DNA from: Caenorhabditis elegans
Lineage: Eukaryota > Nematoda > Chromadorea > Rhabditida > Rhabditidae
DNA: 64,000 nucleotides
Reading direction: 5' to 3'
NCBI RefSeq assembly: GCF_000002985.6
Contig: NC_003283.11
Coordinates: 20,027,501-20,091,500, forward strand
Shown piece after piece: positions 21,882 to 56,324 of this stretch; the first letter of the stretch is position 1, and every line of letters starts with the position of its first letter. Under the pieces are notes generated by a model. The model made no database searches and was not told the origin of the DNA. It saw only the letters and a program-made list of their open reading frames with translations. A program made the position numbers and the translations under genes.

Positions 21882-24800
21882 ATGCATTCCTGCTCAAACC
21901 CGTACCTGGCGAGCCCGGACTTTCTGAAAACCGCGTTCCATGTCATAACCGCCATAGCTACTCCAATTCATGCGTTCGGATTTTATTGCATAATACGAAA
22001 AACCCCGCAACACATGAATCCTGTCAAATGGCTTTTGTTTAATTTGCACTGTTGGTGTATTTTATTGGATGTTACCATTAGCTTTTTGGGTATTCCGTAT
22101 ATACTTTTTCCGGCAATGGCTGGGTATGGTCTTGGGCCCATCGAGTCCCCAGGACTGTTTTTCTATCTGGGAGTCACTTTTGTTACAGGTAGGTTTTTTT
22201 TTTGGAAATTAAAAAAAATCAAAAAAAATTGAAATAAATTTTTGGGACATCTGAGACGTTTTTTAAATGTAAAATTTGAAATCTCAATCAAATTTGGTAA
22301 GATTTTACACCCATATTGGCTATATTCCGAGAAGTTTGAGATTTCAGGCTTTTTCAGGCCGGTTTTAGTCTTAAAAATCAAGATTTAAATTTTGACCATG
22401 ATGGGGCTCAAACAAATTTGCAATTTTAGATTTTTACACTAATATTGTCCATATTCCGAATAGTTTGAGATTCCAGGCTTTTTCAGGCCGTTTCAGGCCG
22501 GTTTTAGGCCGAACTGTTGGGACATTGGAAATTTGAAACATTTGAAACTTTTTTTGAATTTCGGTAAAATTAATATATGGGTGTATGCTGAACACATTGA
22601 GATTTCAGGCTTTTCGGGCCGTTTCAGGCTGAGTGCAGGCCTAAGACTAATTGTTTTCCAAGTTTAGTCAATATGTGTGTGAAATCTTTGAAAATTATAA
22701 GGAAACGTGAAAATTAAAATGAAAAACGTTATAAATCGTCGAAAATTCGCATTTTAAGCTTTTCAGGCCGATTCGGGCCGAGTTCTGGACTAAACTGAAA
22801 TTTCTCTGAATATAGTCAATATGGATGTCAAAACTTTGCGAATTTTGTGAAAAATTCAAAAGTCATACTGAAAAATGCCAAAAAAATGCTCGAAAATTTA
22901 ATTTCAAACTTTTCAAGCCGTTTCAAGCCGATTTCAGGCCTAAACCAAAAAATCAACCAAATATAGCCAATATGGGTGTCAGAACTTTGCGAATTTTATG
23001 AGAAACTTAAATATCACACTGAAAAATGACAAAAATTGGTGAAAAATCTGATTTCAAACTTTTCAAGCCGTTTCAAGCCGATTTCAGGCCCAAACCCAAA
23101 AGTCAACCAAATATAGGCAATATGGGTGTCAAAATTTTGCAAATTTTATGAAAACTTTGAAAATCAAACTGAAAAATGTCGAAAATTGCTGGAAAATGTG
23201 ATTTCAGGCGTTACCACATCGATTTTTGTAACTTTCGAAAATCGATATTTCATTTTGTTTGGTGAATCATCAGCATGGAGATATTTTCGAAAACCTGCAG
23301 TTGTTTTGAGTTATATTATTGTACCGTTATACTACATGCCATTACAGTTTTTCATCCCTGAACAGGAATCCGGAAGGGAAATTTCGTGGGCGGTAGGATT
23401 AAAACCTTCGAAAATATTTGAAATAGATAATGTTTTAAAATTTTAAGGCAGCAGAAAATGTTTTCTGCAATTTTTACTTCAAAAATTAGCCGATTAAGTT
23501 AAGTTTAGAAAAAAAATTTCAAAATTAAAAAAAAAAATTTTGAAAAAAATTTTTTTTTTAGAAATTACTTCTCTGAATTTTGAATAAAAATTAACACAAA
23601 ATTCAAACAATGTCATAAAATTCCAGCTGCTCGACTGTATCCCCGAGCTCCCAAGAGATGGCCGTGAGCTTTTCGTTCTGGCCACTAATCTAAAAGGCCC
23701 GGGCCTGACAATCTTCATATCCGAGATTCTTCCGATAGTTCAATGTGGTACATTTGTCAGTCTTAATTTATATAATTTAACTATAGCGAGACCAAGTGGA
23801 ATGTCGAAAAAGACTATTCAAATGCAACATTTATTGATTTTTGCGTTGATTCTTCAGGTAAAAACTTTTTTCTTCGGGACGTAAACCAGTTTTAAGTAGA
23901 AAATTTGAATTCTACGTGAATTTTGCGTTGATTTGACACCCATATTGACTAGATTCCAAGTTTGTTAAGTTTCAGGCCTGAAATGGCCTAAAATTGGCCT
24001 GAAAAAGCTTGGAACTCCAACATTGCTGAATATGAGGCTTACGTTAGTTTGACACCTATACTGGATATTCTTCCGAAGATTTTTTGTCTTAGGCCTGAAA
24101 TCGGCCTGAAATGGCCTGAAAATCTCAAATTTCAGAACTTAGCCAATATGGGTGTCAAATGATTGCAAATTTCGTGTATAATCCGAATTTTCTATTTTTA
24201 CAAACTTTCGGAACCTCAAAGTGTCCCAAATCGTGGCCCAAACGACACTCCGAAATTCCGCTGGACCATTTTAGCGTACACACATGATTTTTTACTTGAA
24301 AATGCGTTAATTAATGAAATTTCAGTTTGACACCCACATTGACACCCATATTGACAATATTCTGATAGTTATTAGGTTTAGGCCTGAAGTCGGCCTGAAA
24401 CGGCCTGAAATTCTCAAATTTCAGCATGGAGCCAATATGGGTGTCAATTGTGCAAAAATATTAGATAGATTACTCAAATTTTTCCACTGAAAATGTCTGC
24501 TATCGTCCAAGGCCCAGATATTCGGCCTAAATTCGGCCTAAAATGGCCTGAAATTCTGAAATGTCAGAATATGGGTGTCAAAAAAAATATGGGTGTCAAA
24601 TTGGTGTCAAATTTTGTGTAGATTCCGAATTTTTGTGTGAAAAATGCCCCTAATAAACAATTTCAATTTTTTTTTGAAAATTTGGAAAAAAAAAATTTTG
24701 AAAACTTTTGAAAAACAAATTTTTTTTTCTGAAATTTTTTAAACAAAGTTTGACTCAAAATTGGCGTAATTTTGTATTTTCAGGAGTTTTATCAAAAAAA

Positions 24801-25065
24801 AGAATTTTAGGCCTCAGTGAACACATTCCTATTCATAGTACCCGTCAACGCAGTAATATACATAGTATATATCCATCACCAAAATCAATTGCTCAACAAT
24901 TTAATTGTATTCTGCCTGGCTTTTCATGGTATTGTATCTACTCTTATCATGATATTTGCTCATAAGCCATATCGGGACTTCACCCTTCTCCCAGTGAAGT
25001 ACTTCAGGCCGCCTCAGCCGTCAGTGTCTCCAGGAGTTTTTTCCACAAGTAACTTGGCGGTTTGA
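21882..25065 (+). CDS. SRH-type serpentine chemoreceptor, 325 aa
   Basis: Four exons (21882-22188, 23208-23392, 23627-23857, 24811-25065) join in phase to 325 residues, the usual SRH length of about 330. Visible features: N-terminal YLASPDFLKTAFHVITAIATP and MNPVKWLLFNLHCW, both typical of nematode srh; hydrophobic helices throughout; and the conserved C-terminal HKPYRDF (292-298) after TM7, followed by a short Ser/Pro tail. The ATG is 10 bp after a TTTTTCAG, so it may be trans-spliced; an in-frame ATG 30 bp upstream would lie before that acceptor. No break or missing segment is seen, so it is probably functional. Role inferred from family: a GPCR of chemosensory neurons. The exact srh number is not known to me. 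Confidence 0.85.
22240..23180. repeat. GGCC foldback repeats in SRH intron 1
   Basis: A unit with GGGACATCTGAGACG and ACACCCATATTGGCTATATT start, then several cores (about 22345, 22485, 22620, 22765, 22915 and 23065). The last three units repeat about every 147 bp with nearly the same AAACTTTTCAAGCCGTTTCA block, i.e. a local tandem expansion. Confidence 0.75.
23875..24650. repeat. GGCC foldback repeats in SRH intron 3
   Basis: At least two composite units (about 23930-24270 and 24320-24620) with ACACCCATATTGAC arms, cores in both orientations (CGGCCTGAAATGGCCTG), ATATGGGTGTCAAA arms, and an AAACGACACTCCGAAATTCC terminal block near 24240. Confidence 0.7.
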
Positions 25066-25159
25066 TATTGAAATTTTACAATTTTTGATAATAAATCTGT
25101 TTGAAGGTACTTTTTTCTGTGATTTTCTCAAAAAAATCCTATAAAATTCGCTTAAAACC

Positions 25160-26110
25160 GGCGAAAACACCAAGCGGAATTTCGGAGCGTCGTTTGGCAC
25201 ACTTTTGGGACACTTGGGGATACCTAGGACTGTTGTAACTAAAAAATTCGGATTTTACGCAAAATTTGCAAAATTTTGACACCGATATTGACTAGTTTCC
25301 AAAAATTGAGATTTTCAGGCCGGTTCAGGCCGATTTCAAGCCGGTTTAGGCCAGACCATAAAATAAATGCCGAATATTGTAAATGTACGTATAACATTGC
25401 AAATATCAAGGTGTTTGGTAATTTAAACAAATTTTTCGAGAAAAAAAATCATTTGATCCTTAAAATTTATCGAGCGGAATTTCGGAGTGTCGTTTGGGAC
25501 ATTTTTGGGGCACTTGAGGACAGCTAGGACTTTCGAAACTAAGAAATTTGGACTTTACACAAAATTTGCAAAATTTTGACTTCCATATTGACTAGGTTCT
25601 GTAACTTGAGATTTTCAGGCCGTTTCAGACCAATTTCAGGCCGATTTAGGCCAAGCATTGAAATAAATGCGGAATATGATTAGATTGTACGTGAAAACGT
25701 TTGAATAACATGGTGGTCGGTGATTTAAACAAACTTTTTTTTTTTAATCATATAATTTTTAAACTTTATCGAGCGGAATTTCGGAGCGTCGTTTGTGACA
25801 CTTGGGGCTAGCTAGGACTTTCGAAAATGAAAAATTTGGATTTTACGCAAAATTTGCAAAATCTTAAACCCCATATTGACCAGGTTTGGAAACTTGAGTT
25901 TTTCAGGCCGTTTCAAGCCGATTTCAGGCCTAAAAGGCCCCGTAACAGTTATTCTGAAGACAAAAAATGAGATAATCGAACCATTTATGAATGTATATGT
26001 AATGAACGCCTATTTGGACTAGATTCCCAAAAAAGCCTATTGCGGCTTGAAATCGGCCCGAATCGGCCTGAAAGTCAAAGCAATGCTAACCTAGCCAATA
26101 TGGGTGTCAA
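25160..26110. repeat. Tandem ~300-bp GGCC units between SRH and ttx-1
   Basis: AGCGGAATTTCGGAG blocks at about 25173, 25473 and 25772 (period 300 and 299) each begin a unit continuing GTCGTTTG..ACA, TTTGCAAAATTTTGAC, ATATTGACTAG and a CAGGCCGTTTCA core. This is the convergent intergenic region between the SRH gene and ttx-1. Confidence 0.75.
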
Positions 26111-26464
26111 AACTTTGCAAATTTTGTGTAGAATCTGAATTTCTAAACAAATTTTGTGTCAAAAGCGATTATAAATTCAAAAAAAAAAGGTTTGGGTACT
26201 TGAACTTTTAAACATAAATTTCAAATTTGAACATTTATTGATTGAAAAATCTTGATAGTAAAAGTATATGTAAATCAATAATATTGGAATGCGTAGGATA
26301 TATTAGAAATGTGAAAAACTGAAATTTTTCAGGGGAAAAAAGGACTTTGGGACCTAAAAATGTCAGAAAAATTGAAAAAGAAGTGGGAAAAAATCATGGA
26401 AGTTTGAAGTTTTTGTGCGTAAATTATTGATTTTTGCGTAGAAAAAAGAGGAAAAATTGTGATC

Positions 26465-26509
26465 AGTACGATGCTCCGAAATTCCGCCGGAATATCGGAG
26501 CATCGTACT
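26465..26509. terminator. 45-bp near-perfect palindrome 3' of ttx-1
   Basis: AGTACGATGCTCCGA (26465-26479) pairs perfectly with TCGGAGCATCGTACT (26495-26509); the inner ATTCCG/CGGAAT also pairs, leaving one A-A mismatch and a one-base centre. It lies 72-116 bp after the ttx-1 stop, probably in its 3' UTR or just beyond. The inner part resembles the GGAATTTCGGAG block of the neighbouring repeats, so it may be a repeat end rather than a dedicated terminator. Confidence 0.4.
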
Positions 26510-26580
26510 AAAAACCGGAGAGATTTGTGTGAAAAAGAGGTGAAAATTAGTGGGTTTTTTTACAGATTCGCGGATTTTTT

Positions 26581-29500
26581 TCAGCTCATTTGAAATTTCC
26601 AAGTGGAATTTCCGTCCAAAGTGTAGGTGTTGGTGGAATTTGTGTTGGATTGACTGTACTGAAAGTCGTACGCAGGGTAGCTGGCTGAAAATTAGGATTT
26701 TTAAGATTGAAAATTGAAGTTTGGGACATTTGGGGATATCTAGGACTTTTAAGACTAAAAAATTCGGGATCTACACAAAATCTGCAAAATTTTGACACCC
26801 ATATTGACTGGGTTTTGAAATATTTAAATTTCAGGCCGATTCAAGCCGATTTCGGGCCTATAACGTGAAATTTTTGATACTCAACATTTTTGATCAATAA
26901 ACTTGAATTACTTGTTAAATTTTCACAAACTGTACAGGTATTTTGGTTGATTTCCAAAACTCGAGATTTTCAGGCCGTTTCAAGCCGATTTCAGGCCTAA
27001 AACTGAAAATTTTTCGAAAAATAGTTAATATGGGTGTCAAAAAATTCAAATTTTGTGTTGAATTCAAACTCATCAAAATAATAACTCATGTTTGTATAGA
27101 AAATGATGTTTTCACTGAAAAATAGCCGAGCGGAATTTCGGAGTGTCGTTTGGGACACCATTTGGGACACTTTTGGGACACATAAGGCTTGCCAAATTGA
27201 AAAATTCAGATTCTACACAAAATTTGCAAAATTTTGACACTCATATTGACTATGTTTTGAAATATTAAATTTCAGGCCGTTTCAGGCCGATTTCGGGCCT
27301 GAAATGTGAAATTTCTATTCTTTTTACACTTTTGGTCATGAAACTCAAAACTCCTACCAGTTGTGCACGTATTTTTTATATGTTCCAAAATTCGAGGTTT
27401 TTAGGCCGTTTCAGGCCGATTTCAGGCCTAAAATGGCCTAAAATTGAAAATATTCCGAAAATAGTTAATATGGGTGTCAAAAAAAATTCAAATTTTGTGT
27501 TGAATTCAAATTCATCAAAATAAAAACTCATGTTTGTATAGAAAATGATGTTTTCACTGAAAAATAGCCCAGCGGAATTTCGGAGTGTCGTTTGGGAAAC
27601 CATTTGGGACACTTTTGGGACACATAAGGCTTGCCAAATTGAAAAATTCAGATTCTACACAAAATTTGCAAAGTTTTGACACCCATATTGACTAGGTTTT
27701 GAAATATTAAATTTCAGGCCGTTTCAGGCCGATTTCGGGCCTGAAATGTGAAATTTCTGTTATTTAAGACTTCAGGTTAAGAAAAACACAACTTTGCGTT
27801 GAAATTCTACCAATTGGGCACGTATTGTGGTTATGTTCCAAAATTCGACATTTTTAGGCCGTTTCAGGCCGGTTTCAGGCCTAAAATTTGAAATATTTGG
27901 AAAATATTCAATATGAGCGCAATTTTTGTGCAAAATTTGAATTTCTCAAAAAAAAATTGTCCCAGATGTCTGAAAATGTCAAAAACTAAAATACTAAGTT
28001 TCGAAATTTTTCGAAAAGTTTCGAAAATCGATAACTCAGTCAGTTTTCAAGATTTTTGCACAAACTCTTCGGTGAAATGTGTATAAATTTTTGTAGTTTT
28101 TATGAAAATTAAAAAAAAAAAGTTCCAAGAACACTAACCATATGGATACTGGGCTTGTGGCCTAAAAGAAGAAGTTCCATTGTAGGAAGTGGTGCCAGAT
28201 GACGAGGAAATTGGATTAATATATGAGTTTACGCCTTTCTGATCGTCAGCTGACGGACTAATTGATTGTTCATCACATTCTTCTTTAATAACTTCCGAAA
28301 ATTTTAGCTCACTGTCGGTGGTGGCCGGGGATGACGGCTGAACTTCACTCCCAGTAGATCCATTTGAAGATCCACCTCCGGTTGATCTGAAATTCAAATT
28401 TTATAAGCCTAAACTTAACAAAAAAAAATTTAAATAAAAAAACAAAAAAAATATCGATAAAAATTCAATTTTTTTTCATTTTCGAGGAAAATTTAAAAAA
28501 ACTAAAATTTTTAAAACTCGAATATTTCAGTCAATTTTTGAGATTTTTCCCTTATTTTTTTACTATTCCAGGTGAAATTTTTCAAATTTTTAGAAATTCA
28601 TAATAAAAAACTCACCCATTATTTCCAGAACACGTCACTCCGGAATTACTGGGCGCCAGCGTTTTCTTCTGCTGCCTGGCCTTTGCCCGCCGGTTTTTGA
28701 ACCAAACCTGGAAAATACTAAGCTGAATGTCCATTTCGATTATTCTATGTACATTCTAACTGCAAATTTTAAAAAATTGTCTTCAAAAAATCGATTTTCA
28801 AGTTTTTTCTTTTGAAAGTTTAAAATTTTAACGAAAAAATCGATTTTTTGGAAATCTACAGCTATCTAGTGTAGTTTTCAATGTCAAAATTGAAATCTAC
28901 GCAAAATTTTGCATGAATTTAACACCCATATCGACTAGTTTCTTGAAAATTGTAATTCGGGCCTCATACGGCCTGAAATCGGCCCGGAATCAGGAATTCC
29001 AGCAACTGAAGTCGTTTGTGATTAAATTATTTGGAAACGTTTAGTAATCTTATTATATTCGGACTCCTAAACTGACTAGTTTGTTAGAACTTTTTTTTCG
29101 GGCTTACCACAGCCCGAAACTTGGCCCGAAACGGCCCGAAAATGAAAATATTTATTTTTCTTTGTTTTGATATGAATATTTATTTTTTTTGACATGCGCT
29201 CACAAATTGAGACTTGCAAAATGGCACTTCGGACCAAAATCGGCCTGAAATCGGCCCGAAACGGCCCGAAACTCAAACTAATGCTTACCTAGTCAATATG
29301 GGTGTCAAAACTTTGGAAATTTCACGAAAAATTCAAATTTTTAAACAATAAACTCTACAAACCTGAACTCTGCTCTCGGGGAGTTGAATTTTGTGGGCCA
29401 TGTCTTCCCGCATGAAAATATCCGGATAGCGGGTTTTTACAAAGTAACTCTCCAGGATTTCAAGTTGATTCCGTGTAAATGTGGTCCGTTCCCGACGTTG

Positions 29501-48524: not shown

Positions 48525-51500
48525 TCAGCTCCACGTCTCATATTGAATTTTTCCAGTTTCCTCGGCTCGCCGAGTCCATTCGTCTCCTTGAATTTGTGCA
48601 AGAACTGCTGAAACCGCTTTTGGCATGTCACCCGAGCTGCCGGCGATGAATACTTGGGCTCCTGGAAATAAAAAAAAATGATATTCAAATTTTCAAAAAA
48701 TACATTTTTTTTTGAAATTCATAGAATTTACGTTGTAATTCAATATTGCAGTTAAATGTTTTTTTTTTAAATTTAATTTTGCTGTTCAGCCGGAAATTCG
48801 AATTCGACGTTAAATTTGCCACAAAAAACATTATATTAAGTAGTATATTATATAGTAAGCAATATAGTAGTAGTATAGTACACTATATAGTATAAATACT
48901 GAAATACTACATTGCTAGAAAAAATGCCAAAATTGCTAAAATAATAGTACAAATTTTGCTATTTGATTTGATTCTATTTAATGTTATGCTGAAGTCGTGA
49001 AAATTTTAAAGAAAATTTAAATTACCTACCAATGACATTTTAATCACTATTCTGAACAAGGAAGTTACAAATCTAAAAATTTGAGGAAATAGAATTCTTG
49101 AAAACTTTTTTGAAAATTTTTGAAATATGAAATAAGAAATACTACTAAATTGCTGGAATATCACCATTTCCAGAAGTAGTTAAATTTCGTTGATTTTTAC
49201 TTCTGAACTCTTATTTAATAGTATACCTGGTTAGATATTTCGATTTACCGGGGGAATGTGTTAATTGTTTTACTACCTCGATTTTTATATGAACATTCTC
49301 AAAAATTCAATTTTCCCACCAACCTGAATGCCATCATTATTGTTAACAAGAAAGTTACAAATTAAAAATTTAAGGAAATAAAATTATTTATCAACTTTTG
49401 AAATATGGGTGTTTTGGCAAATACTGAAATACCACCATTTCTAAAAATTTACAAAATTTCGTTGATTTTTTTCATCCGAGTTCTTATGTAATAGTATACC
49501 TGGTTAGATATTTTGGTTTTTAACGTTCAATAACACAAAATTCTTGCATGTGCTAAGTATTAGAAGTATATTTTTTAATAGTGTGAAAGTTTCCTTTTAA
49601 AATATTACACACTCATGGTTGAAAATGTTGCGAAATAGCAATAACGTTACAGCAAAATTCATTTATATGTGCTCCCTAGGGTTATATTCTCCGGGGGTCA
49701 GTAGGTTGTAAATGTACCTATTGGATTTACGACTACATATAGTCTCTTATTTATAAGCGCTGTTCATTAAAAACAAGAATTTTTGGCGTTTTGAACAGAG
49801 CGACATTAGAGTGCGACAAAAGGTGATGTTATTAGCAATGTTCCAATAGGTTGTAAATACCACTACTCTCTTACGACTACATATCGTCTCCTATTATACT
49901 TGGTACATTACTAATAACATCACCTTTTGTCGCATTCTAATGTCGCTCTGTTCCAAACACCAAAAAATGCTGGTTTTTATTGAACAGCGCTTATAAATAA
50001 GAGACTATATGTAGTCGTAAATCCAATAGGTAAATTTACAACCTACTGACCCGGGGAATATAACCCTAGGGAGCATATATAATTGAATTTTTTGCTGTAA
50101 CGTACGTTATTGCAATTTTGTAACATTTTCAACCAGGAGTGTGTAGTATTTAAAAAGGAAACTTTTGCACTATTAATATATATATATATATACTTCTAAT
50201 ACTTAGCACATGCAAGAATTTTGTGTTATTGAACGTTAAACCAAAATATCTAACCATGCATACTATTAAATAAGAACTCGGATGAAAAAAATCAACTAAA
50301 TTTTGTAAATTTTTAGAAATGGTGGTATTTCAGCAATTTAGTTGTATTTCAGTATTTGCCAAAACACCCATATTTCAAAAGTTGATAAATAATTTTATTT
50401 CCTTAAATTTTTAATTTGTAACTTTCTTGTTAACAATAATGATGGCATTCAGGTTGGTGGGAAAATTGAATTTTTGAGAATGTTCATATAAAAATCGATG
50501 TAGTAAAACAATTAACACATTCCCCCGGTAAATCGAAATATCTAACCAGGTATACTATTAAATAAGAGTTCAGAAGTAAAAATCAACGAAATTTAACTAC
50601 TTCTGGAAATGGTGATATTCCAGCAATTTAGTAGTATTTCTTATTTCATATTTCAAAAATTTTCAAAAAAGTTTTCAAGAATTCTATTTCCTCAAATTTT
50701 TAGATTTGTAACTTCCTTGTTCAGAATAGTGATTAAAATGTCATTGGTAGGTAATTTAAATTTTCTTTAAAATTTTCACGACTTCAGCATAACATTAAAT
50801 AGAATCAAATCAAATAGCAAAATTTGTACTATTATTTTAGCAATTTTGGCATTTTTTCTAGCAATGTAGTATTTATACTATTAGGTTGGTCAAAAAGTCT
50901 TTGCAAAATTTTGATTTTTTTTTGGAAGTAGTATTTTTTCAAAGCGAACAAGATTCAATGGGTAATATATTTACCATTAATGCCTATGACTTCTTGCCAA
51001 CACAACGGAATTTGAACAGTACCCTCCGCCTAGAACTCCTGCGATTAGTGAGCGGAACAGATGGTAGTCAGTAGGAGCCAAGCCCGGCGAATACGATGGG
51101 TAAGACAACATTTGGATTCCGACTGTCTGGAGCTTCTGGCGGGGTTTAAAAGTTGTATGCGGTCTTGCGTTGTCATGTAGCAGCAACAATTTTGATCCTC
51201 TAGGGCGATGTAATCGATGAGCATGGACCACCTTTTCCAATTAAATGCAGTATAGGCCAGCGTTGATTGTAGCAAAGTCTGGAAGAAGCTCTCTGGAAAT
51301 GACACCCTTACTGTCCCGCCCAATTGAGAGAAGCACTTTTTTCCGTGAAGTTCTCATTTGAGGTCAGGTGTCGCGGTTTCCTCGACCGGGACCCACTCTT
51401 TTTTCCTGGTATGGCTAACATACAATACCCATTTCTCATCTCCAGTAATGGTATCCTTAACCCAGTCCGTCGTTCGTTTCCTAGTGAGCAGCGAAAGAGA

Positions 51501-53801
51501 GAGGTCACAAAGAAATTTTTCTGAGAATCGGACAATTTGTGAGGAACGAGTTGACCGAACTTTTCTATCTTTCCGGTTTTTTGGAGATGGTTGATGATGA
51601 TTCTTTGGGGATGCTTGAGAGTCGCAGAAAGTTCGCGTGACGTTGCTCTTGAATCATCTTCCAGGGCTCTCGAAATATCCTAATCGATATCCAAACGAGA
51701 GCGATCTTATCTTGGTTTATCATCGAGATCGTTGTTCTTTTTCTTGAACTTTTCAAACCAAAACTTCATGGTATTGTAGGAGACAGAGTTATCGCCTAAT
51801 ACTGCACACATATTACGACGAGCTTCGTTGCAACTGTGGCCTTGGAGGAACTCGTACAGAAAAACCCCTCGGAGAGCGTGGGGATCGGCGAGCAAATTCT
51901 CGGTCATTTTGAACAGTACCTACAAGTTTTTCAAATGGATTAAGCATGCACAGTACGTACTATACAAATAAAAAAACAGAATTGGAAAAAAATAAATTAA
52001 CGCTGAGCAATGAAGAAACAAACAAATTTTGCAAAGACTTTTTGACCAACCTAATAGAATCAAATCAAATAGCAAAAATTCTACTATTATTTTAGCAATT
52101 TTGGCATTTCTTCTAGCAATGTAGTATTTCAGTATTTATACTATATAGTGTACTACTACTACTACTTTATTGCTTACTATATATTATACAACTTAATATA
52201 ATGTTTTTTGTGGCAAATTTAACGTCGAATTCGAATTTCCGGCTGAACAGCTCCAAAAAAAATTCCAATTTCAGTTGAATTTCAACATTTTAAACCATAA
52301 CATTTCAATTTTCAACCACTAAATTTGACGGTGAATTCGATTTACCCGTACCTAAATCCAGCATTCTCTTGATTTTCCCGGCATTTTCGCCCATTTTATG
52401 CTGTACATAGACTTTTCGACCATCTGTATCCCGACTAAAAGCCGGAATCACTGCAACTCCGCTAAGCTCTGGCCATTCATCACTGAAATAGTAGTCGTGG
52501 TGTTCACTTCGACATCCGAAGAACAAGATTCCCGGAAAGTGAGCGGAGCTGAAAAAATGAGGGGTTTTTTCGGGGGAAAAAGCTCGAAAAATGCATTTTT
52601 TGATCAAAAAATGCCGTTTTTCATCAATTTTTCTTCAATTTTTCCAAATGTTTTTTCAATTTCTAGCCTATATTTCTCCAATTTTCAGTGTACTAACAAT
52701 AAGCTTCTATGTCCGAATAGACTTCTGAATGGTGCCACACCGGTTCCCGGTCCAATACAGATGACTGGAGCTTCTGGAGACGGAAATTTGAAGGTTCCGG
52801 GACGGATTTTACAGAATACCTGAAAAAAAATTATTGAACTTTGAGGAAATTTTGGGCTGCAATTTTTTTTTTCACTACAAACTAAAAACTACAAAATTTT
52901 AGGAAATCCATGTGAAAATCAGTTTTTTCTCGCTGCTATAGGTATTTCTATCAGAATTTCACGAAATTTTCAATTTTCAATCAAAAATTCCAAACTTTGC
53001 ACCTCATCACCAGGTTTCAGCCTTGAAATGAATGTACTGCATAATCCACGTCGTTTATCGGCCATTCTTGATTTATATTCGACTTTTGCCACAAGTAATT
53101 CCAAGTGGAATGGACTGGGCGCCGAGGCAATACTGAATGCTCGCGGGCGAATTGTCGTGAGAATTTCGAAGAGATAATCTGGAAAATTTTGGGATTTTTT
53201 GGGGGGTAAAATATAATTTTTAATAGAAAAATTCGCAATTTTCTCAGACTTTTCAAAGTAAAAAGTGTATATTTAATATTCCAGGAATTTTCAGATTTTC
53301 GCAAATTTTTTTGTTTGAAAATTCTCAGTTTTTGGTGTGAAAATGAGAAAATTATTTTGAAGGAGTCATTTTGGATTATTTAAAAATATCGGAAATTTAC
53401 CGAAAAAGCGGCTTTAAACTGAAAATTGGCAAGAATTTCGAAAACTGTCAATTTTTTTTGGGGAATCTGTATTAAACAACAAGCTACTACTGTAAATTAA
53501 ATTACTTGTTTTTCAAAATTTCAGAAATTTTTTATACTTTTTTTTGCGGATTTTAGAAAGACTACTTACTTAATTATTAAATAACTAAGTGAGTACTTAA
53601 TTAATTAATTTTTTTCAAAATTTCAGAAAACTGTTTCCGTATATTATTATAATGACTACTTAATAGTTGAACAACTAAGTATGTAATTAATTATTTTTTT
53701 GAACATTTCAAAAATGTGTTAAACATCTACTTTCTAATGATTAAACAATCAATAAGTCAGTACTTAATTCATACTTTTCCGAAAATTTTTCCAGTTTTTG
53801 A

Positions 53802-53850
<49 letters not shown>

Positions 53851-56324
53851 TATTATATATATAAATAATCAAAAACTGGAAAATTTTTCGGAAAAGTATG
53901 AATTAAGTACTGACTTATTAATTGTTTAATCATTAGAAAGTAGATGATGTTTAACATTTTGAAATGTTCAAAAAAATAATTAATTACATACTTAGTTGTT
54001 CAACTATTAAGCACGTAGTCATTATAATAATATACGGAAACAGTTTTCCAAATTTAAAAATAACTACTCATTCAATTATTAAACAACTAATAGTAAGTAT
54101 GTAATTAATTAAATTAGTTTTTCTTTTTCAAAATTTTGAAAACTGGTCCAAATTTTTAAATCACTACTGATTAAACAACGAAGTAGGTATTAATTAATTT
54201 AGTTGTTTTGAAAATTTCAGAAAACTTCAAAAATATTCCAAAATTTAAAAGTGACTACTCATTTCATTATTAAGTAACTAATTTTAAGTGTATTTATTTA
54301 TATTTTAATTAAATTACCTTTTTTCCAAAAATTTAGAAAATGTTAACGTATTTTTTTAAAGTTACTACTTACTTATTCATTAAACAACTATCTAAGTGCT
54401 TAATTGATTTTTTTTCCAAAATTTCCAAAATTTGGTCCAAATTTTAAATAACTACTAAGTATGTATTTAATAATTACATTAGTTTTATATTTTTCAAAAT
54501 TTCAATTTTTATAAAACTCTAGCTTATAACACTATTTTCAGTCCAATTTCGCCTGGTTTTTTCCCCCCGTACCAGGCTTCAAATTTTTCGACGTAGCGAC
54601 AAAATCGCGTAGAGCTTCTGCAGTTGTCCGTCTTGAGCGATTAGCGTAGTCTAAATAATCATCAAGACCCTCTGGAGATGCCAATTCTTGTAGACGTTCC
54701 TTTTCCGGCGGATTCGTTGAATAATAGCCGAGCATTTCGAAAAATGAACGTTTCGGGACTTGTTGGAGGTCGAAATATCGCTGGAGACATGTGAGAAGTG
54801 TCGTTTTTGCTGAAAAATCTTTGAAAAAAATTATATTAAATACAGTTTTTTTCACGAAAATTATGAAAATTTGAGGTTAAATTTCAAATTTAAGAAGATA
54901 TTTTGAAATTTTCTCTACTTTTTAGTACTAAAAGAGGTTAAAAAAGATTTTTCAGAAAAACTGAATTTTTCTAAAAAAAAAATAAAATATTTAGCTGATT
55001 TTCGCCAATTTTTTCCAATTTTTTCAAGAAAAATTCAAACTTTCTTTCAGGTTTTAAAAAAATTAAATTTTTTCCAGATTTCTTAAAATTTTCTCTCAAT
55101 TTTTTAAAAATCTTTATAATAATTTTTTATTTAAATTTGAGGTTTTTTCCTCGATTTTTAACATATTTTTAGAAAAATCTTCATTTTTCAATAGTAAAAA
55201 AAAATATATATTTTGCGGATTTTTGACAATTTTTTCCATTTTTTAAAAAGAAATTTCGGATTTTTCAGGCTTTTTTTCAAATTTTCAAGTTTTAAAAAAA
55301 TTTCCAAAAAAAAAAAAAATGTTCTTTCCATATTTCTTAAAATTTTCTCATAATTTTTTAAAAACCTTTATAATAATTTTTTATTTAAATTTGAGGTTTT
55401 TCTCTCGATTTTTAACAAATTTTCAGAAAAACTGAAAAAAAAATTTTTTTTTTTTTTAATTTCCAGATTTCTTAATATTTTCTATAAATTTTCTAAAAAA
55501 TCTTTATAATAAATAAAAATAAAAAAAAATTTTTTCTTCAAATTTTCAATTTTTCTTCAGAAATTTTCTCTGTAAAACTGGAAAAAAACGACGCACTTCC
55601 AACCAAAAAATTGGGTGGATTTTTGGAAAATCTGTCATTTTTCACAATTTTCAGCGGTTTTTTGAGTTGTTCTTCTGTTAGGCCGAGTGCTTCGATAGCG
55701 ATTTTTACAGTTTCTTCAGGATTATAGGGTCGAACCATTAGAACGTCACCGGGCTGAAATCTGGAAAAAAAAGAAGAGAAAAAATGTGGAATTTTCGTCG
55801 CAGTTTTTCGCGAGGGTTTTTACCCCATTTTACTGCGATTTCTGTCAGAAATTTCGAAATCCACGAGCCGGGTGTCTTGGAAGTGCTCTGCAGAGGTTAG
55901 GCGTCGATTTTTGAGCACTTTTAGCGGAAAGTAGTCCGGAATCTCGATTTGGGGTTCTGGAAAAGTTTGACTTTAGGATTTTTCGGATTTTTAGGAAAAA
56001 AAATTCGAAAAAAGTTGAGTTTTTTTTTTGAGTTTAGAAATTTTTTTTTGAATTCTGTAATTATTTAGCCGTTTTTAACGGAAAATTTGAAAAATTTTGA
56101 CAAAACTCCGAATTTTTTGGTAATTTTCGCACACTTTTTCGGCTGATTTGTCAATCATAATTATTTTCCAAAATTTTCGTTCCAGTTTTTCAGGAAAATT
56201 CGTATTTTTGCGTTTCTTCGCTCATAAAATCGGGAAATTCCGGCTTTTTTGAACAGTCAATTGAATATATATATAATATATATAATATATATATATATAT
56301 GTTAAATAACTTATATAGTATGTG

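What the first reader, a model, noticed from the sequence alone, without database searches (positions are those of the whole stretch)
48781..52251. Kilobase palindrome with mariner and a duplicated flank, inside an intron of an Fe-S assembly gene
Two ~1.05-kb arms match inverted. The mariner in the right arm sits between two ~85-bp near-copies (50803-50880 and 52057-52142, both with GAATCAAATCAAATAGCAAA) while the left arm has only one. So insertion was accompanied by, or followed, a local duplication; the copies differ by several substitutions, so a simple target duplication is excluded. When fre-1 is transcribed the intron can form long dsRNA, a candidate ADAR or small-RNA substrate. Alternative: an older tandem unit lost from the left arm only.
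Basis: partly seen in the sequence, partly recalled or inferred. Interest (0 to 1): 0.75.

Follow-up and report, generated by a model that had tools for sequence, protein, structure and literature searches.

The report
Worm intron palindrome with hybrid mariner
A long DNA palindrome in a worm gene's intron holds a hybrid jumping gene with a short duplicated stretch on each side, best read as scars of recombination between two jumping-gene insertions and of copying between the palindrome's arms: a well-preserved case of known processes.

Summary
Window 48781-52251 is a palindrome with arms of about 1.05 kb, found only once in this 100.3-Mb genome, in the last intron of a minus-strand NDOR1-like diflavin reductase gene. 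A 1174-bp mariner (50881-52054) with TA ends sits in the right arm, flush between 81-bp and 89-bp copies of one arm segment. (1) Copy A plus the adjoining inner arm matches the left arm at 532 of 534 bases, while the outer arm (190 of 197 positions) and the inner arm (383 of 411 aligned, 7 gaps) are more diverged: the pattern of recent arm-to-arm gene conversion ending at the mariner. (2) The mariner is a mosaic: 79 of 81 diagnostic sites on the left are of one subfamily, 31 of 35 on the right of another. Best reading: two mariners inserted at two TA sites 87 bp apart in the arm, and recombination between them made one hybrid element with the intervening segment on both sides; arm conversion followed. 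The intron RNA is predicted to form helices of 364 and 151 bp; ADAR editing is plausible but untested.

The parts
48662..52351 (-). last intron of the NDOR1-like gene (donor TTAG/GTACGGG, acceptor TTTCCAG/GAG)
   Evidence: splice-site sequences; reading frame joins as DLG/AQVFIAG from the open frames (inference)
48525..48661 (-). last coding exon, ending in a stop
   Evidence: open frame; name by the upstream exons
48781..49850 (+). left arm of the palindrome, no mariner, one copy of the duplicated segment
49851..49892 (.). centre of the palindrome, poorly matching
49893..50880 (+). inner part of the right arm, up to the mariner, copy A included
50341..50874 (+). conversion tract, 532 of 534 identical to left arm 48902-49435
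   Evidence: run test
50800..50880 (+). copy A of the duplicated segment, 8-bp deletion near its end
50881..52054 (-). mariner, 1174 bp, broken transposase on the minus strand, 77 bp shorter than most relatives (missing after element position 166)
50881..51708 (.). left part of the mariner, L013-type subfamily
   Evidence: 79 of 81 sites
51744..52054 (.). right part of the mariner, L016/L017-type subfamily
   Evidence: 31 of 35 sites
52055..52143 (+). copy B of the duplicated segment
52055..52251 (+). outer part of the right arm (copy B included), 190 of 197 against the left arm
48975..48976 (.). TA in the unoccupied left arm matching the mariner's right junction (site P2)
48888..48889 (.). 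TA in the unoccupied left arm matching the mariner's left junction (site P1), 87 bp from P2

Best explanation
This is a single-copy long palindrome in an intron whose right arm bears the product of recombination between two mariner insertions. The arm has two TA target sites 87 bp apart: P2 (AAATA/GAATC) and P1 (ATACTA/TATAG). One mariner (subfamily of L013) sat at P1 and another (subfamily of L016/L017) at P2, in the same orientation, on different copies of the arm. A crossover or conversion inside the elements joined the left part of the first to the right part of the second. That gives one hybrid element with the segment between P2 and P1 on both sides, each junction still a canonical TA. 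Later, arm-to-arm gene conversion made the inner right arm and the left arm alike as far as the mariner, which has no partner in the left arm; so copy A and the tract became almost identical to the left arm while copy B and the outer arm kept about 3% divergence. Shown: flush duplication, TA junctions, mosaic element, step in divergence. Inferred: the two parental insertions, the order of events, the direction of conversion. As RNA the intron should fold into a long hairpin, an expected but untested ADAR substrate; whether it is under selection was not tested.
For: Mosaic: 79 of 81 L013-type sites at element positions 35-828 and 31 of 35 L016-type sites at 864-1141; split chi-square 89.0, highest of 37 two-ended copies; largest of 60 column shuffles for this copy 37.9. 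Separate searches agree: right 310 bp 97% to the L016/L017 pair, next 92%; left part 98-99% to L013-type copies, 87% to the L016/L017 pair. The switch runs on to the right end of the element, as one crossover would give. Flush duplication in 1 of 37; TA on both sides in 37 of 37. Both required TA sites exist in the unoccupied left arm, 87 bp apart. Tract 532/534 against outer 190/197 (Fisher 0.002) and inner 383/411 plus 7 gaps (Fisher 3e-11) (zone limits chosen after seeing the alignment); zone-free run test 0 of 200000, or 5 of 200000 with clusters collapsed. Differences in the tract (2, counted over 2 x 534 lineage-bases) are rarer than in the mariner's left part against L013 (14 of 860; Fisher 0.0006), which suggests that conversion is younger than the element. 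Unequal crossing over between mariners is proposed in print for this worm (PMC2728738).
Against: No genome with either single insertion was available. Mosaics also occur without flush duplication: L010, L020 and L027 share a short right-end patch (chi-square 62-70), so the hybrid could have formed elsewhere and then inserted. Four of the 35 right-hand and two of the 81 left-hand sites go the other way. The 8-bp deletion in copy A needs a separate slip between two AGTATTT repeats. Two insertions within 87 bp are rare a priori. The age comparison rests on small counts and an unsampled source element. PMC2728738 found no general link between transposons and tandem duplications (p = 0.56).
Confidence: 0.55

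Rival explanations
1. Tandem duplication first: an 89-bp segment of the right arm was duplicated in tandem (sharing TA at its edges), and a mariner that was already a hybrid inserted at the TA on the joint; arm conversion followed.
For: Mariners do enter tandem arrays here (L032); hybrids exist that are not flush-flanked (L010, L020, L027); TA is the normal target.
Against: The element must hit one particular TA of about 26 in the two copies (12 + 14), and its being a hybrid is an unrelated coincidence. No second copy of this hybrid was seen among the 40 places scored in each.
Confidence: 0.22
2. Break repair with overshoot: a mariner at P2 in the right arm was broken at its left end; the inner arm end invaded the left arm, copied it past P2 for about 80 bp, and was joined to the mariner end by a short match (TAT).
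For: Explains with one event why copy A and 534 bp equal the left arm and why the tract ends at the mariner.
Against: Does not explain the hybrid element; needs the joint to fall by chance or short match on a TA that fits a normal insertion.
Confidence: 0.15
3. Simple target-site duplication of about 85 bp made at insertion.
For: The repeats are flush with both ends.
Against: 37 of 37 two-ended copies have TA at both ends and the other 36 have no flush repeat beyond it.
Confidence: 0.02

Closest known systems
Cemar1-flanked tandem segmental duplication on C. elegans chromosome V (PMC2728738; passages and section 10 read)
   Same: A duplication with a mariner at its joint and edges, attributed by its authors to unequal crossing over between mariners
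   Different: 106.7 kb instead of 89 bp; elements 99.4% alike there, a hybrid of two subfamilies here; Cemar1 is another mariner type: three stretches at the published coordinates gave only weak partial matches to this element (coordinates are of an older genome release)
Long inverted repeats of C. elegans thought to be kept alike by arm-to-arm gene conversion (PMC1803023; abstract and Discussion read)
   Same: Kilobase arms, short spacer, near-identical stretch for which arm-to-arm conversion is proposed
   Different: Theirs lie between paralogous gene pairs and are compared across species; this one is intronic, its conservation is untested, and the near-identical tract stops at a transposon
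Introns with inverted repeats as dsRNA and A-to-I editing substrates in C. elegans (PMC4282642; passages read)
   Same: Intron over 1 kb with inverted repeat and transposon; long predicted helix
   Different: No editing or J2 data seen for this locus; in that paper about 25% of expressed genes have intronic inverted repeats, so this is a common kind

Membership tests
Mariner (Tc1/mariner superfamily) element | terminal inverted repeats with TA target duplication | tested here: met
   TTAGGTTGGTC...GACCAACCTAA with TA on both sides; 37 of 37 two-ended copies alike, this one included
Mariner (Tc1/mariner superfamily) element | mariner-type transposase | tested here: met
   HTH domain of Mos1 transposase (PF17906) E 3.9e-21; DDE_3 weak (0.0025, below cut-off); the frame is interrupted
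Cemar1 type of mariner | same sequence as the elements at the published V:2.35-2.56 Mb duplication | tested here: not met
   three stretches at the published coordinates give only weak partial matches (alignment scores 91-94)
Palindrome with arm-to-arm gene conversion | near-identical block between more diverged arm parts | tested here: met
   532/534 between 190/197 and 383/411 plus 7 gaps; run test
Palindrome with arm-to-arm gene conversion | arms more alike within a species than between species | not testable with these tools
   the tool states that the genome has no relatives here
Product of recombination between two mariners | hybrid element | tested here: met
Product of recombination between two mariners | flush direct flank repeats, each boundary a TA target site | tested here: met
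Product of recombination between two mariners | parental single insertions in other genomes | not testable with these tools
   no other isolate held
ADAR-edited dsRNA intron | long intramolecular helix in the sense transcript | tested here: met
   predicted helices of 364 and 151 bp, MFE -1943 kcal/mol; four other 3.7-kb stretches of the window, + strand, gave -799 to -984 and longest runs of 21-39 by a looser count
ADAR-edited dsRNA intron | A-to-G clusters in RNA, lost in adr-2 mutants | not testable with these tools
   no RNA data

The most novel reading that the evidence does not exclude
One inter-arm event made everything: a chromosome whose left arm bore a mariner at P1 donated some 530 bp of arm, copy A and the left two thirds of its mariner into a right arm that bore another mariner at P2, so that the palindrome itself drove the making of a hybrid transposon; the mariner-bearing left arm was later replaced by an unoccupied allele.
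Probability: 0.15. Interest if true: 0.5.

Novelty: new member of a known kind. Interest (0 to 1): 0.4.

Why it matters
It is a compact record of two homogenising processes at one intronic locus: recombination between transposons of different subfamilies, and palindrome arm-to-arm conversion that stops at a transposon. The two target sites make a sharp prediction for wild isolates. The predicted perfect helices of 364 and 151 bp in a pre-mRNA of an Fe-S assembly gene (that role is recalled) would be a good single-locus test of how introns with long dsRNA are edited and spliced. The processes themselves are known.

Tried and rejected
Large target-site duplication: rejected, 37 of 37 two-ended copies have TA ends and only this one a flush repeat beyond it. 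The palindrome as a dispersed repeat family: rejected as far as the searches reach; elsewhere only remnants of about 60-160 bp at 69-85% identity (those searches skip very common words). Naming the mariner Cemar1: tested and dropped. Flank repeats as a commonplace of the family: L026, L032 and L053 have flank repeats scoring 20 or more, but none is flush with both ends.

A first mosaic score (second part) was ill-chosen (it picked one-sided pairs) and is not used. The second was distorted by L028, whose left end does not align: 15 copies scored above the window copy there. L028, L015 and L054, all truncated, were dropped before the count of 37. In one search, 24 other copies score 40-62 with the window copy itself offered as left parent, which is the same mosaic seen from the other side; L010, L020 and L027 score 62-70 with L013 and L016 as parents; the remaining 9 score 21-33. 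The shuffle null was made for the window copy only. The FastTree terminal branch of 0.037 for the window copy is inflated by the mosaic and was not used for dating. 40 of 63, 69 and 58 first-look candidates were scored, and three places listed (C1:7980334, C4:9808200, C5:14622765) were not fetched, so the family is larger than what I examined. L016 and L017 have the same 25-base flanks and are probably one insertion counted twice.

One search failed for stop codons in my frame; (a 43-residue last exon) gave only two weak matches to lactate oxidase (E about 0.05), no use; one search gave weak matches to sulfite reductase flavoprotein models for 4 of 5 exon frames, all far below cut-off; one search gave none. 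Paper searches: the gene name with diflavin (0 papers) and with editing terms (0 occurrences in each of 15 listed of 36) found no mention; one search found none in the main text of PMC4282642; supplements could not be read. Searches were read as listings only, apart from the four papers named in this report. One search (passages of PMC12239620) gave mariner totals for two strains and nothing on this locus.

Full report
Setting. The window is C5:20027501-20091500 of a 100,286,401-base genome in 7 contigs. Size and contig number match the C. elegans reference; that identification is mine, no call named the organism. The finding lies in the last intron (52351-48662, minus strand) of a gene with Flavodoxin_1 and FAD_binding_1 exons, whose flavodoxin exon matches human NDOR1 best (4h2d, E 1.7e-18; next, cytochrome P450 reductase, 5e-7; that 4h2d is the human protein is recalled). 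The frame joins as DLG/AQVFIAG across the intron (read).

Observation. The arms begin and end exactly at 48781 and 52251. With the mariner set aside, the left arm (48781-49850) aligns to the right arm in three zones: outer, 197 bp, 190 matches, 6 mismatches, 1 gap; middle, 534 bp (48902-49435 with 50341-50874), 532 matches; inner, 383 matches, 28 mismatches, 7 gaps. The outer and middle zones overlap in the left arm, because the left arm's one copy of the segment is compared with copy B in the one and with copy A in the other. I chose these zones after seeing the alignment, so I also ran a zone-free test on the arm taken once: 41 differences over 1066 columns leave an event-free run of 402 columns; random placement reached that in 0 of 200000 trials, or 5 of 200000 when clustered differences were collapsed to 30. 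The palindrome was found only here: searches with the left arm, core and outer arm gave itself and short weak remnants.

Mariner. The element is 1174 bp (50881-52054) with ends TTAGGTTGGTC/GACCAACCTAA and TA at both sides. One search scored 40 places of this family, this one included. It carries a Mos1-type helix-turn-helix segment, but its frame is broken and it lacks 77 bp that most relatives have; L016 and L017 lack a different, overlapping stretch. I examined those 40 copies; 3 were truncated. Of the 37 with two ends, 37 have TA on both sides and 1, this one, has direct repeats flush with both ends. Three others (L026, L032, L053) have flank repeats that are not flush; L032 lies in an array of about 162-bp units.

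Duplication. Copy A (50800-50880, 81 bp) and copy B (52055-52143, 89 bp) both run from one TA to another TA. In the left arm the segment occurs once and the two TAs lie 87 bp apart. Copy A equals the left arm except for an 8-bp deletion at two AGTATTT repeats; copy B differs from both by 3 substitutions in its first 75 bp. So copy A goes with the left arm and the tract, and copy B with the outer right arm.

Mosaic. At 116 sites that distinguish L013 from L016, the element is L013-like at 79 of 81 sites up to position 828 and L016-like at 31 of 35 sites from position 864 on. Separate genome searches agree: the right 310 bp match the L016/L017 pair at 97% and the next place at 92%; the left part matches five L010-L013-type copies at 98% over positions 167-850 and the L016/L017 pair at 87%. 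With parents drawn from the two-ended copies, the split chi-square is 89.0, the highest of 37; the largest of 60 column shuffles for this copy was 37.9. L010, L020 and L027 share a short patch of the same kind at the right end, so hybrid elements are not unique to this locus.

Reading. Two parental insertions of different subfamilies at the two TA sites, recombined within the element, give at once the hybrid, the flush duplication and two canonical junctions. The tandem-duplication-first rival needs insertion at one particular TA of about 26 and an independent coincidence that the element is hybrid. The break-repair rival explains tract and copy A neatly but not the hybrid. The conversion step is supported by the divergence profile and looks younger than the element (2 differences over 2 x 534 lineage-bases against 14 of 860); that comparison is rough, since the element's source copy is unsampled and the tract was picked by eye. 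In the literature seen, unequal crossing over between mariners is proposed for a 106.7-kb duplication in this worm (PMC2728738), although its authors found no general link between transposons and tandem duplications (p = 0.56); arm-to-arm conversion is proposed for long inverted repeats of this worm (PMC1803023).

RNA. Folded as the minus-strand transcript, the intron (3688 nt used) has a predicted energy of -1943 kcal/mol and uninterrupted helices of 364 and 151 bp. Four other 3.7-kb stretches of the window (+ strand, arbitrary places) gave -799 to -984 kcal/mol and longest runs of 21-39, by a looser count that overlooks bulges on one side. In C. [quoted passage not shown] Nothing here tests it.

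Noticed in passing
53659-54011: A second, shorter hairpin (158-nt arms, 94% complementary, 37-nt spacer) among the same gene's exons, probably in another intron.
   Followed up: no
24048-27714: Cluster of overlapping inverted repeats, 71-82% complementary.
   Followed up: no
L016 (C6:1952849-1957001) and L017 (C6:1944698-1948850): Two mariner copies with the same 25-base flanks, 8.15 kb apart, probably one insertion copied by a segmental duplication; the closest relatives found of the hybrid's right part.
   Followed up: partly
L010, L020, L027: Three mariner copies share a short right-end patch of the L016 type, a second and separate mosaic in the family.
   Followed up: partly
L032 (C5:4601750-4605758): Mariner inserted within an array of about 162-bp tandem units.
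   Followed up: partly
49194-49519 and 50234-50582: Each arm itself holds imperfect direct repeats at spacings of 273 and 292 bp (82-85% alike), so the arm may have grown from an older repeat.
   Followed up: no
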